From Syntrophothermus sp. UBA1445 (GTDB taxonomy: Bacteria > Bacillota > Syntrophomonadia > Syntrophomonadales > DTU052), in assembly GCA_002329495.1 (NCBI GenBank), contig DCTH01000078.1, forward strand, positions 1-15,517: 15,517 bases of DNA. Direction: 5' to 3'. The notes beneath the pieces are model-generated. The model was not told the DNA's origin. It saw only the letters and a program-made list of their open reading frames with translations, and ran no database searches. Below are positions 1 to 8,257 of the stretch, in pieces (within the stretch, counting starts at the first letter, position 1; each line of letters begins with the position of its first letter). Both the position numbers and the translations under genes were made by a program.

Positions 1-79
1 TTTCCGCCACTTTCGCCGCATCGACCACTGACCCGATGTTGGTGCCGCATTCACAAACAAAGACTCCTACTCGTTTCAC
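1..79 (-). CDS. hdrA: Heterodisulfide reductase subunit A, N-terminal fragment (partial)
   Basis: Only the first 26 codons are inside the window; the gene runs off the left edge. The reading begins MKRVGVFVCECGTNIGSVVD, which matches the typical HdrA start (hydrophobic strand, then a C-x-C-G-T-N-I segment leading into the flavin/FeS domains). The start is a GTG at 77-79, which overlaps the TGA stop of hdrB (GTGA, 76-79), with a GGAGGGG ribosome binding site about ten bases upstream inside the hdrB tail. HdrA is the FAD and iron-sulfur subunit that bifurcates electrons in soluble heterodisulfide-reductase-like complexes; in anaerobic Bacillota it is inferred to link NADH or formate/hydrogen, ferredoxin and another acceptor. 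The partner of this complex is not visible here. Confidence 0.85.
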   Translation of the reverse strand, partial: MKRVGVFVCECGTNIGSVVDAAKVAE

Positions 80-1266
80 GCCTTATTCCCCTCCTCTCCA
101 GCAGATTTTTCTTTGGCCTTTTTAGCCAGCAGGGCATCGGCCACCTTGAGGGCTTTGCCTTTATCCTGTTCCAGTATCTCTTCCAACTTGGCAGCCCGAG
201 CCGGTTCCTGCACCAGGATTTCCGCCAGCTGGGCAGCCTTGGCCTCATCATCGTAAACCTTCTTCGCCAGGGCCAGGTTAGCATCCTCAGAGGCTGCAGG
301 CTCTTCACTCTTGGCCGGTGCTTTGTCGGCTTTGGCCTTAGCCGCACCCTTGCCCTTCTTGCTGGCGGCCTGGGCTGCTGCTTCCTCCATGGCTTTGGCC
401 TTGGCCGGAAGCTGACGGAATATAGCGTTGGCTTCCACAAAGTGGCGGTTAGTACCCACTGTGGGTGGTTCATCACCACAGGCAATCGCCACCAGTTCCG
501 TCACGTAATATACTGGCAGGTTAAACTCGGTCTGGTACTTCTTCTCGATGGCTTTCTGCCGCATATCCAGATTCAAGTGGCAAACCGGACAGGCGGTAAC
601 AATACTGTCGGCTCCCATTTCCTTGGCGTTCTTCAATATCCGGTAGGTCATTTCCAGACAGATGTCGGTCTGGGTCACTCCCAGGCCGGCACCGCAGCAC
701 TCGGTCTTGAAAGCCCAATCCACTGGAGAAGCACCCAGTGTCTTCATAATGTTATCCATACTCTGGGGATCTTCAGGATCATCAAACCCCGTTATTGCAA
801 CCGGGCGAACCAAAAGACAACCGTAGTAGCAGGCTGGTGTCATACCCTTCAACGGTTTAGTCACTTTGGATGCCAGGTTATCCAATCCGTAACGTTCGGC
901 CAGGAGTTCCAGGACGGATACCGAATTTTGAGTGGCCTGAAAGGGCATACCTATAGCCTCTTCAACTTGACTGCGGGTCTTGGCGCTGGCCCTTACCTCA
1001 TATTCCGTAGCCCGCATGCGGTTATAGCAGGCGGCGCAAGGTGCCAGAGTATCAAGTCCCTCCTTTTCCGCAATTGCCAGATTCCTCGCCGGCAGGGATA
1101 TTGCCAGGAGGTGGTTAGTCTGGTGAGCAGAGCTGGCCCCGCAGCAGTTCCAGTCGGGTATCTCCCAGAGATCGATGCCTAAAAGCTTGGCCATCCTATG
1201 GGTTGACATCCCGTATTCAATGGACGTGGCGTCCAAGGAACATCCCGGATAATATGCCAATCTCAC
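76..1266 (-). CDS. hdrB: Heterodisulfide reductase subunit B with long Ala/Lys-rich C-terminal tail
   Basis: 396 residues, where HdrB is usually about 290-300. Two CCG (cysteine-rich) domains are clear: C9, C41-C42-G, C77-x2-C80, and C150, C190-C191-G, C226-x2-C229. These match the pattern that binds the noncubane 4Fe-4S clusters of HdrB, the thiol/disulfide-active subunit. After about residue 290 the protein turns into a low-complexity Ala/Lys/Glu-rich linker (about 293-328). It then has three short helical repeats of the form (K/R)AxxLxEIL (about 341-383), which are not part of the known HdrB fold. The start is GTG at 1264-1266, preceded by a near-perfect GGAGGTGATC Shine-Dalgarno, and overlaps the hdrC stop by four bases. 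It forms a coupled hdrC-hdrB-hdrA unit. Identity as HdrB is very likely; the tail function is unknown. Confidence 0.93.
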   Translation of the reverse strand: MRLAYYPGCSLDATSIEYGMSTHRMAKLLGIDLWEIPDWNCCGASSAHQTNHLLAISLPARNLAIAEKEGLDTLAPCAACYNRMRATEYEVRASAKTRSQVEEAIGMPFQATQNSVSVLELLAERYGLDNLASKVTKPLKGMTPACYYGCLLVRPVAITGFDDPEDPQSMDNIMKTLGASPVDWAFKTECCGAGLGVTQTDICLEMTYRILKNAKEMGADSIVTACPVCHLNLDMRQKAIEKKYQTEFNLPVYYVTELVAIACGDEPPTVGTNRHFVEANAIFRQLPAKAKAMEEAAAQAASKKGKGAAKAKADKAPAKSEEPAASEDANLALAKKVYDDEAKAAQLAEILVQEPARAAKLEEILEQDKGKALKVADALLAKKAKEKSAGEEGNKA

Positions 1267-1829: not shown

Positions 1830-2152
1830 TAACTCCTCTCCTTTCTTAAAATGAGATGCCAGTCCCCAGGTATGGCAACAGAATCCGGCCACACGGATCC
1901 CTGCAATTTGAGCACACTAATCAGGACACCATCAAAATTGCAAGCAACTATTCCCGGTTAACTCCTAGCAACTATTACTTTATTATAACTAATCATGTCA
2001 AATTGCGGTGTTAAATGTATGTAAAGTGTTAACCCAATTTATAGCAGAAGCCCTAAATTTGATATTGCTTGCATCAGAACTATGGAATAATGTAACATAT
2101 TAGTTAGATAGTGAACACATTTAACCATTTTATTGGCAATTTAATAGTATAC
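1830..2152. other. Intergenic region between hdrC and the TPP riboswitch
   Basis: About 320 AT-rich bases between divergently oriented units. No credible reading frame was seen. It must hold the minus-strand hdrC promoter and the plus-strand promoter of the riboswitch transcript. A plus-strand candidate is a TAGTAT -10 at about 2145-2150 immediately before the aptamer, or TTGCTT...TAATGT about 60 bases earlier. Neither is strong. Confidence 0.5.
1974..2002 (-). promoter_or_regulatory. Possible hdrCBA promoter
   Basis: On the minus strand a consensus TTGACA (1997-2002) is followed after about 18 bases by a weak TAATAG -10 box. A better TATAAT-like box (1982-1987) is too close to this -35. A 9-bp direct repeat, GCAACTATT on the plus strand (1944-1952 and 1968-1976), brackets the predicted start region and could be a regulator site. 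Tentative; no transcript evidence. Confidence 0.3.
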
Positions 2153-2243
2153 AGGCCACGGGGGGCTGAGGAGTCGGCTGAGATAGAACTATGGTTCTGA
2201 CCCGCTAACCTGATCTGGATAATGCCAGCGTAGGGATGTGCCA
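2153..2243 (+). ncRNA. TPP (THI-element) riboswitch aptamer
   Basis: The thiamine pyrophosphate aptamer signature is complete. It has GGGGGCTGAG near the 5' end, the CTGAGA pyrimidine-sensing segment (2178-2183), and ACCC followed by ACCTGATCTGGATAAT and GCCAGCGTAGGGA (2208-2236). A closing helix pairs GGC(C)AC near 2153-2158 with GTGCC near 2239-2243. TPP binding normally represses thiamine synthesis or uptake genes. The aptamer is followed by an intrinsic terminator, so control would be at transcription. The only coding trace downstream on this strand is a decayed ABC ATPase, so the switch no longer controls an intact gene in this window. Confidence 0.95.
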
Positions 2244-2268
2244 AACGCGAATTGAATTTTGCGAATTA

Positions 2269-6704: not shown

Positions 6705-7175
6705 CTAGGCACGTAGAGTTGCAATCAGACGCCTGGGCTCCAACAGAAGATCGAGAGCGTCCCTGATATCGCGCACCGCTATCCGGGCATTTTTAAGAGC
6801 GTCAATTGAGCATCCTTCCTGACCTATGACTACGATGGGCAGTCCGGCTGATCTCAGCATGCCGGTGTCATTGAAGCCATTACCGATAGCAATGGTGCTT
6901 TCGCTGCCTAACCTGGCAACGAATTCCTCTTTGTCCCGGTTTCCATCAAAGGGGCTTACCACCGTTAGACTCACACCCATCGCGGATGCTGCATCACTAG
7001 CCAGGCCGAAGGTATCCGCAGTGACCAGGTAGATATTCAGCTTTTCCCGCAGTTTACTGATTCTCCACTTAACCCCCGGAATTAATCGGCCATCGGTAGA
7101 GATAGTCCCATTCATGTCCAGTACTAAGTCGGTAAAAATCAGTTCTCCGACTCCTGGTACCACGACCTGGTACAA
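6705..7175 (-). CDS. HAD-family soluble P-type-ATPase-like phosphatase (COG4087)
   Basis: 156 residues from a TTG start. HAD motif I is LVLDMNGTIS (nucleophile D20), closer to the DKTGT of P-type ATPases than to the usual DxDxT; motif II is VTADT; motif IV is GNGFNDTGML (the GDGxND metal site). The core has no transporter segments, so this is the free-standing cytoplasmic class. The substrate is unknown. The TTG at 7173-7175 is preferred because AGGTG lies seven bases upstream and the product (MYQVVVPGVGEL) begins as family members do. An ATG at 7188-7190 has no ribosome binding site. Its stop is about 20 bases before the first AIM24 start, so they are probably co-transcribed. Confidence 0.82.
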   Translation of the reverse strand: MYQVVVPGVGELIFTDLVLDMNGTISTDGRLIPGVKWRISKLREKLNIYLVTADTFGLASDAASAMGVSLTVVSPFDGNRDKEEFVARLGSESTIAIGNGFNDTGMLRSAGLPIVVIGQEGCSIDALKNARIAVRDIRDALDLLLEPRRLIATLRA

Positions 7176-7227
7176 TAGTATACACCTCATTTTCGGGTGA
7201 ATTATGTCATAATTTTACTTTTTATAT

Positions 7228-7259
7228 TTCGCATAGAGGTAAGATTCCCTGGTCATAAT
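7228..7259 (+). promoter_or_regulatory. Promoter-like boxes for structured RNA 1
   Basis: A conserved GCATAGA (7231-7237) and GGTCATAATA (7251-7260) precede copy 1 with the same 20-base spacing as before copy 2. CATAAT (7254-7259) suits a -10 box, with transcription starting near 7266, at the base of the first helix. The -35 side (TTCGCA at 7228-7233) is poor, so the sigma factor is uncertain. Confidence 0.5.
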
Positions 7260-7265
7260 ACTATC

Positions 7266-7462
7266 AGAGGCCAGCGGAATCAGTCTTCGGACTTAATAAG
7301 TCCAGGTTTCCCTTGCTAGCGGAGTAATTCCTGGACACTCCTTTTCAGGAGTTTTAACCGCTGGTCTCCAGTAGACCCACAGACTTCCATGCTCTTATTG
7401 AGCTTTCAATGTCGATTTGATTATATCGATTTTGATTCGGGAGTCTGTGGGTCTTATTTTCT
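7266..7462 (+). ncRNA. Structured RNA, copy 1 (unidentified)
   Basis: No reading frame, but extensive pairing. In the 5' domain, P1 pairs 7267-7277 with 7358-7368 (11 pairs, one G-U) and encloses three elements. These are AGTC(TTCG)GACT at 7282-7293, P2 GTCCAGG/CCTGGAC (7300-7306 with 7330-7336), and P4 ACTCCT(TTTC)AGGAGT at 7337-7352. In the 3' domain, P5 has a perfect 13-bp stem, AGACCCACAGACT (7373-7385) with 7442-7454. It encloses P6 GCTC/GAGC (7391-7403) and P7 TCGAT/ATCGA (7412-7429), then runs into TTATTTTCT. The layout recurs in copy 2 with compensatory changes. I do not recognise an Rfam family. No plus-strand gene follows, so a free-standing RNA is more likely than a riboswitch. Confidence 0.75.
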
Positions 7463-7528
7463 CTTCAGAGAATAGGTTAGACAAAAACCTCTGAGTCTCC
7501 GCCACCTGACATTAATTTTTCGTTCTTT

Positions 7529-7560
7529 TTTGCATAGAACTTCAGGCCGGTGGTCATAAT
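7529..7560 (+). promoter_or_regulatory. Promoter-like boxes for structured RNA 2
   Basis: TTTGCATAGA (7529-7538) and GGTCATAAT (7552-7560), spaced as before copy 1. CATAAT at 7555-7560 predicts a start near 7567, just before the first base of P1 at 7568. Confidence 0.5.
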
Positions 7561-7566
7561 ATACCC

Positions 7567-7755
7567 AGAAGCCAGCGACGGTCTTTGAGTTTAGGCTCAG
7601 GTCTCCCCTTCGGGTGGAATAAATCCTGACCGCTCCTTCTTAGGAGTCTTCGTCGCTGGCTTCCATGAGGCCCACAAGCTTCCTGCTCTGTTAAGAGCTT
7701 CAGATTCGGTTATTACCGGTTTTGATATAGATTGCTTGTGGGCCTTCTATTTTTC
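7567..7755 (+). ncRNA. Structured RNA, copy 2 (paralogue of copy 1)
   Basis: Same architecture as copy 1, offset by 301 bases. P1 is a perfect 13-bp stem (7568-7580 with 7651-7663). P2 is TCAGG/CCTGA (7597-7601 with 7625-7629), enclosing a C-rich/G-rich TTCG hairpin. P4 is CTCCT(TCTT)AGGAG at 7633-7646. P5 is a perfect 12-bp stem, AGGCCCACAAGC (7668-7679) with 7734-7745. P6 is GCTCT(GTTA)AGAGC at 7685-7698. P7 is CGGT(TATT)ACCG at 7707-7718. It ends in T-rich CTATTTTTCT. Unpaired stretches kept in both copies include TTCC before P6 and TTTTGAT after P7. Paired bases differ compensatorily (for example in P5 and P7), which supports a real RNA fold. Confidence 0.75.
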
Positions 7756-7770
7756 TGTGTAACCCCTTTT

Positions 7771-7840
7771 GATGAAATACCCGGGAAGGAACAAATTACG
7801 GTTCCATAAGTCCCGGGTCTAGGTTTCATCTTTCCTTTTT
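7771..7840 (+). terminator. Long hairpin before a T-rich run, between the RNA pair and the CBS gene
   Basis: Three stacked stems: GATGAAA (7771-7777) with TTTCATC (7824-7830), ACCCGGGA (7779-7786) with TCCCGGGT (7811-7818), and GGAAC (7788-7792) with GTTCC (7801-7805). TTTCCTTTTT (7831-7840) follows on the plus strand. It could stop plus-strand read-through from the RNA genes into the convergent CBS gene, or be a third small RNA. No T-run follows in the minus direction. Confidence 0.6.
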
Positions 7841-7861: not shown

Positions 7862-8257
7862 TCAGTCGACTTCAGTCTCTTCGCAAAGTCTGATTAAAAC
7901 CTGCAGCAGATCAGTATCCGTTATAATTCCCACCAGTTCCCCGGATTCGATTACCGGAAGCGCACTGATTTTATGGGTTATCATTATCCGGGCCGTCTCA
8001 GGTATGGTTTCATCCGGAGATATATAATGAACTTTTTTGGTCATAACCCATTCTACCGGTGTATGCGGGATCCTGCCCGGACTGCGCAACGCGTTCTCTA
8101 TATCATGTTGTACCAGCATCCCCACCAGTTTTCCCCGGTCGGTTACCGGCAGGCGCCGGGTATTATTATCCCGCATTATCTCGAGAGCCTCTTGAATGGA
8201 GTTTCTTGGCGAGACCGTAATTACTGGGCTTGACATGATGTCTTTAATCCTGGTCAA
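7862..8257 (-). CDS. CBS-domain-pair protein
   Basis: 131 residues made of two CBS domains: about 7-58 (DIMSSPVITVSP ... RRLPVTDRGKLVGMLVQHDI) and about 70-124 (VMTKKVHYISPDET ... ISALPVIESGELVGIITDTDL). Stand-alone CBS pairs bind adenine nucleotides or related ligands and act as energy or redox sensors; the partner and ligand are unknown here. The start is TTG 8255-8257 behind GGAGGGAGGAGG; the first in-frame ATG would cut into the conserved IKDIMSSPV segment. It is apparently a single-gene unit, convergent with the structured RNAs. Confidence 0.9.
   Translation of the reverse strand: MTRIKDIMSSPVITVSPRNSIQEALEIMRDNNTRRLPVTDRGKLVGMLVQHDIENALRSPGRIPHTPVEWVMTKKVHYISPDETIPETARIMITHKISALPVIESGELVGIITDTDLLQVLIRLCEETEVD

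What the first reader, a model, noticed from the sequence alone, without database searches (positions are those of the whole stretch)
7266..7755. Tandem pair of paralogous structured RNAs with covarying helices
Seen: two non-coding units 301 bases apart on the plus strand share a layout of at least six helices. These are P1 11-13 bp, P2, P4, P5 a perfect 12-13 bp, P6 and P7. The sequence between has diverged. P5 differs by A-T to G-C exchanges and in its inner pairs (GACT/AGTC against AGC/GCT). P7 changes CGAT/ATCG to CGGT/ACCG, and P1 differs in length but stays fully paired. Loops keep TTCC and TTTTGAT. Each unit has a promoter-like box placed to start at P1 and a T-rich end. No gene lies downstream on that strand, so this looks like a free-standing RNA family of about 190 nt rather than a riboswitch. 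I do not recognise it.
Basis: partly seen in the sequence, partly recalled or inferred. Interest (0 to 1): 0.88.

Follow-up and report, generated by a model that had tools for sequence, protein, structure and literature searches.

The report
Tandem structured RNAs of developing spores
Two neighbouring stretches of non-coding DNA appear to encode an undescribed, intricately folded RNA of about 190 letters whose control signals suggest that it is made inside a forming bacterial spore.

Summary
Units 7264-7462 and 7565-7753 (+) fold into domain 1, P1(P2,P3,P4), and domain 2, P5(P6,P7); P5 is terminator-like. Full-length covariance model R1 finds relatives in families f1 (5 of 5 genomes) and f3 (3 of 4). 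Core (domain 1) models and conserved neighbours add 18 of 54 f2 genomes, 13 firm and 5 weak, with f2 only partly searched. On 14 full-length copies 36 of 55 pairs change on both sides, 0 of 500 shuffles as many; G-U outnumbers A-C 37 to 3, so the + strand is the RNA. Rfam has no credible match.

Both units follow GCATA-N15-GGTCATAATA, a perfect forespore sigmaF/sigmaG site. Of 32 copies checked, 19 have a perfect site and 10 a one-mismatch site; background is 0.085% perfect, 1.3% within one mismatch. In two f3 genomes the RNAs lie divergent from the operon holding sigF.

I read it as a new family of trans-acting forespore RNA with a P3 internal loop, RGUC...AUAAAUCY, conserved in most copies. 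It is like CsfG in promoter logic but not a member; CsfG was not detected in this order. Expression, partner and function are untested.

The parts
7231..7260 (+). forespore sigmaF/sigmaG-type promoter of unit 1, GCATA-N15-GGTCATAATA
   Evidence: consensus strings recalled, discriminator bases from passages of PMC3789822
7264..7462 (+). RNA unit 1 (type a), about 195 nt with T-rich end
7267..7368 (+). unit 1 domain 1: P1 7267-7277/7358-7368 enclosing P2 7282-7293, P3 7300-7336, P4 7337-7352
   Evidence: MFE structure; covariation
7304..7332 (+). unit 1 P3 core, AGGTTTCC...GGAGTAATTCCT
7373..7454 (+). unit 1 domain 2: P5 7373-7388/7439-7454 enclosing P6 7391-7403 and P7 7406-7435; T-rich tract follows, terminator-like
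   Evidence: MFE structure; covariation
7532..7561 (+). forespore sigmaF/sigmaG-type promoter of unit 2, GCATA-N15-GGTCATAATA
7565..7753 (+). RNA unit 2 (type b), about 190 nt; T-rich tract to about 7757
7568..7663 (+). unit 2 domain 1: P1 7568-7581/7650-7663 enclosing P2 7586-7599, P3 7600-7631, P4 7632-7647
   Evidence: MFE structure; covariation
7599..7627 (+). unit 2 P3 core, AGGTCTCC...GGAATAAATCCT
7667..7746 (+). unit 2 domain 2: P5 7667-7679/7734-7746 enclosing P6 7685-7698, P7 7700-7725 and the TTTTGATATAGAT strand
   Evidence: MFE structure; covariation; pattern

Best explanation
Two tandem paralogous genes for a stand-alone structured RNA of about 190 nt. Each is transcribed in the forespore by sigmaF and then sigmaG polymerase from its own promoter and ends at P5, which is both a structural stem and the terminator. 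The RNA most likely acts in trans in the maturing spore as a stable RNA whose core is domain 1, with the P3 internal loop (RGUC opposite AUAAAUCY) as the likely contact site for a protein or RNA partner. Shown: conserved structure, strand, promoter motif, P3 loop conserved in most copies, recurring neighbours in f1 and f2, no Rfam match. Inferred: forespore transcription, termination at P5, trans action, the role of the P3 loop and the kind of partner.
For: Fold z -5.3 or lower in 15 of 15 full-length copies, 0 of 100 shuffles as low; two f2 copies z -5.0 and -5.3, 0 of 200. Covariation on 14 full-length copies: 95.9% of cells paired, 36 of 55 pairs with double changes (shuffle mean 15.7), slid controls at most 50.5% paired. 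On 21 core copies: 95.0% paired, 17 of 20 pairs with double changes (shuffle mean 11.7), slid at most 52.0%. Finds by models not built from them: R1 G008 E 1.9e-13 and G012 2.9e-13; R2 G022 2.2e-6, G045 4.5e-5, G023 0.0055, G032 0.026; R3 G056 1e-8, G048 4.6e-5, G033 2e-4, G035 0.0058, G043 1.3e-8, G014 7.4e-4. Strand: G-U 37 against A-C 3, 18 against 3 on the core alignment. Promoter, not part of any model: f1 9 of 9 perfect; f3 2 of 6 perfect, 3 one mismatch, 1 two; f2 5 of 12 perfect, 6 one, 1 two; five weak f2 finds 3 perfect, 1 one, 1 two; random 48-nt windows 0.085% perfect and 1.3% within one mismatch. Control: the same motif precedes spoVAC-spoVAD after the sigF-position gene in G006. 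In G006 and G012 the RNAs lie 2.2 and 2.8 kb from that sigma gene, divergent from the carboxypeptidase gene heading the operon (the G012 carboxypeptidase by eye).
Against: No expression data. Three of 32 copies have two promoter mismatches and 10 have one. Further pair types on the core alignment are fewer than in shuffles (29 against 32.9, 499 of 500 shuffles as high), although the other four measures exceed all shuffles. Both covariation alignments were fitted to the model structure. R1 and R3 score weakly on the opposite strand (best E 3.8e-6, 0.0067), so weak hits rest on promoter, layout and position too. Five f2 finds (G024, G019, G007, G034, G037) score only E 0.08-0.56. The first f3 copies lack the P3 core. 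No copy was found near the HAD gene in several f2 genomes searched there. One firm carrier, G045, has no sigG hit over the cut-off; its assembly is in about 300 contigs. Rooting and orthology of copies are unresolved.
Confidence: 0.75

Rival explanations
1. It is a base-pairing sRNA: C/U-rich loops pair with Shine-Dalgarno regions of forespore mRNAs, a mechanism that the CU-rich loops of CsfG bring to mind, and the structure mainly gives stability.
For: CsfG, with the same kind of promoter, is described as having conserved CU-rich stretches in loops and between helices (PMC3574147 passages). TTCC or CTTCC joints occur in f1 copies; the 5' side of the P3 hairpin is C/U-rich (GTCCCT, GTCTCC) in most copies.
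Against: The C/U-rich part of P3 is in its stem; the conserved unpaired part is the A-rich AUAAAU strand. CTCCT lies inside stem P4, and P4 is absent or different in several copies. No target search was made.
Confidence: 0.17
2. It is a divergent member of the CsfG family (Rfam RF00516 ylbH, whose Rfam strand is opposite to the transcript).
For: Same class of sigmaF/sigmaG promoter; CsfG not detected in this order, so the distribution is complementary.
Against: No RF00516 match at E up to 5 in the window stretch or E up to 1 in 18 related loci. The core model R3 has no match at E up to 1 in 8 CsfG-type loci. Architecture differs.
Confidence: 0.05
3. It is a mobile or repeat element without an RNA role.
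For: Palindrome-rich; tandem in f1 and f3. A second, 25-bp blastn hit at E 0.007 elsewhere in G006 was not followed.
Against: One locus per genome in the 8 genomes found by R1; recurring neighbours; G-U bias; promoter in front; no phage match.
Confidence: 0.02

Closest known systems
CsfG sRNA (Rfam RF00516 'ylbH', opposite strand)
   Same: Stand-alone structured RNA, reported as controlled by sigmaF and sigmaG and restricted to the forespore (PMC9147052 passage); the same promoter form stands at 5 of the 8 CsfG-type loci fetched here
   Different: No covariance-model match either way; the Rfam model has 122 positions of serial hairpins and CU-rich loops are described, while ours has a multi-branched domain 1 with a conserved P3 internal loop and often a second domain. 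RF00516 hits: 0 of 63 order genomes, 19 of 38 others at E up to 0.001, one of these over the curated cut-off (order membership inferred from handles)
ModT / raiA-motif RNA
   Same: Stand-alone highly structured RNA of 215-260 nt whose loss gives a sporulation defect in C. difficile (PMC11706538 abstract and passages)
   Different: Housekeeping sigmaA promoter; no Rfam raiA match here
Bvs196 of Bacillus velezensis
   Same: Sporulation-specific sRNA (PMC9147052 start of abstract and passages)
   Different: 294 nt, from Bacillus; sequence not compared here

Membership tests
CsfG / RF00516 | match to the Rfam covariance model | tested here: not met
   none at E up to 5 in the window stretch, none at E up to 1 in 18 related loci
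CsfG / RF00516 | CsfG loci match our core model | tested here: not met
   R3 on 8 CsfG-type loci, no hit at E up to 1
CsfG / RF00516 | sigmaF/sigmaG-type promoter | tested here: met
CsfG / RF00516 | conserved CU-rich unpaired stretches | tested here: not met
   the conserved unpaired stretch is A-rich; no CU-rich unpaired stretch is invariant (by eye)
CsfG / RF00516 | forespore-restricted expression | not testable with these tools
   no transcriptome data here
raiA / ModT | match to the Rfam raiA model | tested here: not met
   whole-window and local Rfam scans
riboswitch or cis-leader | gene directly downstream on the same strand | tested here: not met
   next gene on the opposite strand in the window, G001, G004, G006, G008 and G012
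new forespore RNA family (this report) | covarying structure in independent genomes | tested here: met
new forespore RNA family (this report) | forespore-type promoter at the 5' end | tested here: met
   19 of 32 perfect, 10 one mismatch, 3 two
new forespore RNA family (this report) | P3 core RGUC...AUAAAUCY | tested here: inconclusive
   kept in f1, the second f3 copies and most f2 copies; variants in f1 type a (UAAUUC) and G014; absent from the first f3 copies; diverged in G019, G007, G034, G037

The most novel reading that the evidence does not exclude
An undescribed RNA family holds, in this order, the forespore-RNA slot that CsfG holds elsewhere in the phylum. It stands behind the same kind of sigmaF/sigmaG promoter in all three families of the order, in two genomes beside the sigF operon, while CsfG was not detected in any of the 63 genomes. 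Spore development would then call for some structured forespore RNA, filled by unrelated molecules in different lineages.
Probability: 0.33. Interest if true: 0.8.

Novelty: new member of a known kind. Interest (0 to 1): 0.66.

Why it matters
Few structured RNAs are tied to the forespore, and CsfG is reported to have no identified mRNA target (PMC9147052 passage). A second, unrelated family with the same promoter logic in anaerobic syntrophs would let one ask what forespore RNAs have in common. Its small conserved core with one conserved internal loop is a defined target for structure work and for finding a partner.

Tried and rejected
Rfam, gathering and relaxed: no credible match at this RNA in the window, f1, f3 or f2 loci (a SECIS_3 hit in L134 at 261-319 is elsewhere on that locus). 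A first reading of mine was wrong: I first took the RNA to be absent from f2 because R1 found none there and its best laxer-filter hit in 33 f2 genomes was E 0.24. On rechecking, that hit (G027) proved to have the P3 core, a one-mismatch promoter and the window's own CBS and HAD neighbours at 47% and 51% identity; core models then found many more. The other three weak R1 hits (G019, G009, G036) lie in coding frames. For this reason the odds of the best reading went from 0.72 to 0.75, of the novel case from 0.25 to 0.33, and interest from 0.60 to 0.66.

The sigF neighbourhoods of f2 gave no R1 hit and were not rescanned with R2 or R3. A sigmaG-like site upstream of dacF in G005 and G009 leads into short coding frames. 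The P3 pattern had four extra hits (G004, G015, G018, G046) without a perfect forespore site just upstream, the G015 one inside a coding frame; I judged them chance and did not follow them. A class-wide search was the same 63 genomes. The phylum sample (398 genomes, 6 candidates scored in each) hit only 4 order members with R1; since R1 misses f2 forms, the core is untested outside the order. f2 itself is only partly searched: R2 on 39 of 54 f2 genomes, R3 only on fetched neighbourhoods. The copy tree leaves 7 of 11 inner branches open. No mRNA target search was made. Literature searches list no paper that describes this RNA by title or abstract start; most subscription papers are not held and the CsfG paper itself could not be read.

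Full report
What is there. On the + strand, between a HAD-like hydrolase gene (6705-7190, -) and a CBS-domain gene (7862-8257, -), lie two non-coding units, 7264-7462 and 7565-7753. They are 67% identical over 184 aligned bases and fold alike: P1 closing three hairpins (P2, P3, P4), a short joint, then P5 closing two hairpins (P6, P7), then a T-rich tract. z-scores are -9.3 and -8.1, 0 of 200 shuffles as low. Rfam gives no match at gathering score; at E up to 5 it lists a plant-virus pseudoknot and a snoRNA, on the other strand and far below cut-off.

Full-length relatives. blastn over 101 related genomes found the locus in 6. Model R1 (10 copies) found it in 8 of 63 genomes of the order: f1 5 of 5, f3 3 of 4, f2 0 of 54. 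In f1 the four genomes of one genus carry a tandem pair and G004 one copy. Each f3 carrier has a second, diverged copy downstream: E 4e-9 (G012), 2.3e-8 (G008), 2.6e-5 (G006) in a search of 8 loci, where the best opposite-strand hit is 3.8e-6. The three second copies are 68-78% identical to each other (on the alignment). Contig lengths tie G001, G002, G003, G008 and G012 to public assemblies titled Syntrophothermus sp. DTU052, Syntrophomonadaceae bacterium (three) and Bacillota bacterium. The sixth hit of that scan, in a Helicobacter contig, I did not inspect.

The core in f2. A weak R1 hit in the f2 genome G027 (E 0.236) turned out to lie between a CBS gene and a HAD gene that are 47% and 51% identical to the window's, with a one-mismatch promoter, the P3 core, and P1 followed directly by a T-run. 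A P3 pattern found a second genome of that genus, G062. A domain 1 model (R2) then found, besides G062 from which it was partly built, G022, G045, G023 and G032 in 40 genomes, 39 of them f2, and G018 weakly (E 0.022 in 14 loci). R3 on 20 neighbourhoods of the f2 HAD gene found G056, G048, G033 and G035 at E under 0.01, and weaker hits at E 0.08-0.56 in G024, G019, G007, G034 and G037. G014 and G043 followed. I count 13 firm f2 carriers: G022, G045, G023, G032, G018, G056, G048, G033, G035, G014 and G043 (E under 0.05 by a model not built from them) and G027 and G062 (P3 core, promoter and neighbours); 5 more are weak. G022, G045, G023 and G032 were found genome-wide; each lies next to a small membrane-protein gene that also adjoins the RNA in G027 and G062, and G045 and G023 have the deacetylase gene on the other side as G027 does (likeness by eye, Pfam run on G027 and G062 only). 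For the copies found in HAD neighbourhoods, nearness to HAD is by selection. By eye, 8 of 16 f2 copies folded with 120-130 downstream bases show a second long stem like domain 2 (G018, G032, G023, G022, G035, G048, G033, G024), as does G014. So domain 1 is the common part and domain 2 is often present.

Covariation and strand. On 14 full-length copies 95.9% of cells pair, 36 of 55 pairs change on both sides (shuffle mean 15.7), covariation score 0.451 against 0.201, 0 of 500 shuffles as high; sliding the partners drops pairing to at most 50.5%. On 21 core copies 95.0% pair, 17 of 20 pairs change on both sides (shuffle mean 11.7), score 0.667 against 0.323, 0 of 500; the number of further pair types is the exception, 29 against 32.9. 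These alignments were fitted to the models; RNAalifold on the 10-copy MAFFT alignment, made before any model, had 20 of 55 pairs with kept double changes. G-U against A-C is 37 to 3 and 18 to 3, so the + strand is the RNA. The longest closed frame in 15 copies is 38 codons; in the window copies 4 and 14.

The promoter. P1 of each window unit starts 6 bases after GCATA-N15-GGTCATAATA. This meets the sigmaG form GHATR-N18-CATWHTA and the sigmaF form GHATR-N15-GGHHANMWTR (strings recalled). With these exact spacings they are the only sites in the window, expected 0.03 and 0.04; allowing 17-19, a third sigmaG-form site appears at 8053 on the - strand inside the CBS gene. PMC3789822 passages say the two promoter kinds differ by a G upstream and an A downstream of the -10, and that spoVT, having both, may be a direct target of both factors; the window sites have both. 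Over 32 copies 19 are perfect, 10 have one mismatch and 3 have two; in 20,000 random 48-nt windows of f2 neighbourhoods 0.085% are perfect and 1.3% within one mismatch. The promoter was not part of any model, though my acceptance of G027 and of the weak f2 hits leaned on it. As a control, the gene after the sigma gene in G006 is spoVAC, followed by spoVAD, and carries GTATA-N18-CATAATA; a similar-looking gene in G012 does too (likeness by eye). That spoVA is sigmaG-dependent is recalled. The regions after the sigma gene in f1 gave no such site in L070, L073 and L075 and one without an evident spoVA gene in L074.

Setting in f1 and f3. In f1 the CBS gene adjoins the RNAs in the window, G001 and G004, the HAD gene in the window and G004. 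In G006 the RNAs are divergent from a D-Ala-D-Ala carboxypeptidase gene (Pfam Peptidase_S11, PBP5_C) that heads two small genes and a sigma gene, 2.2 kb away; G012 has the same layout at 2.8 kb (operon names dacF-spoIIAA-AB-sigF assigned from order, size and recall). In G008 the RNAs follow an SbcC-like gene and the sigma gene is on another contig. G010, the f3 genome without a find, has only two sigma hits, best E 1.9e-39, against about E 1e-148 for sigG in its relatives. R3 found nothing on the contig of its HAD gene. That is one genome, and R1 is known to miss divergent forms. sigG is over its cut-off in 52 of 63 order genomes, 45 of 54 in f2 by my count; the window genome scores 456.4 against 457.

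How it most likely works. A forespore-type promoter, no gene behind, a maintained fold and a conserved A-rich internal loop point to a trans-acting structured RNA of the forespore. The P3 core reads RGUC, a hairpin, then AUAAAUCY; it is kept in f1 (type a with UAAUUC), the second f3 copies and most f2 copies. The first f3 copies lack it but keep the domain 2 strand TTTGATATAGAT shared with f1 type b, so tandem copies may have split roles (inference). Type a split off before the f1 genus radiated (clade 100/99).

Against known kinds. CsfG is nearest in logic: controlled by sigmaF and sigmaG, forespore-restricted, no mRNA target known (PMC9147052 passages), and on the opposite strand of the Rfam ylbH element (PMC3574147 passages). 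Neither model matches the other's sequences. RF00516 gave hits in 19 of 101 genomes, all outside the order, one over the curated cut-off. ModT/raiA uses a sigmaA promoter (PMC11706538 passages). Hence a new family of a known kind, not filed under CsfG.

Noticed in passing
window 2149-2253 +: A TPP riboswitch (69.7 bits) is followed by only a 68-codon frame (2363-2569) resembling, by eye, the ABC-transporter ATPase near the RNA in G004 (L006 29-769); it may be a remnant here.
   Followed up: no
window 76-1266 -: An HdrB-like protein (name recalled) ends in a long alanine/lysine/glutamate-rich tail.
   Followed up: no
window 7783-7819: A GC-rich hairpin sits between unit 2 and the convergent CBS gene, perhaps that gene's terminator.
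   Followed up: no
Rfam RF00516 loci L010, L012, L013, L014, L015: In 5 of the 8 fetched loci a perfect forespore-type promoter lies on the strand opposite to the Rfam ylbH match, in line with PMC3574147 passages that the transcript is on the other strand.
   Followed up: partly
L032 4348 -, L039 3250 +: A sigmaG-like site shared by G005 and G009 upstream of dacF leads into short coding frames that I did not identify.
   Followed up: partly
L007, L023, L024 (f3): In each f3 tandem pair the second copy keeps the P3 core and the first does not, while the first keeps the TTTGATATAGAT strand of domain 2.
   Followed up: partly
L134 261-319 +: A sub-threshold selenocysteine insertion element (SECIS_3, 44.3 bits, cut-off 63) in G056.
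   Followed up: no
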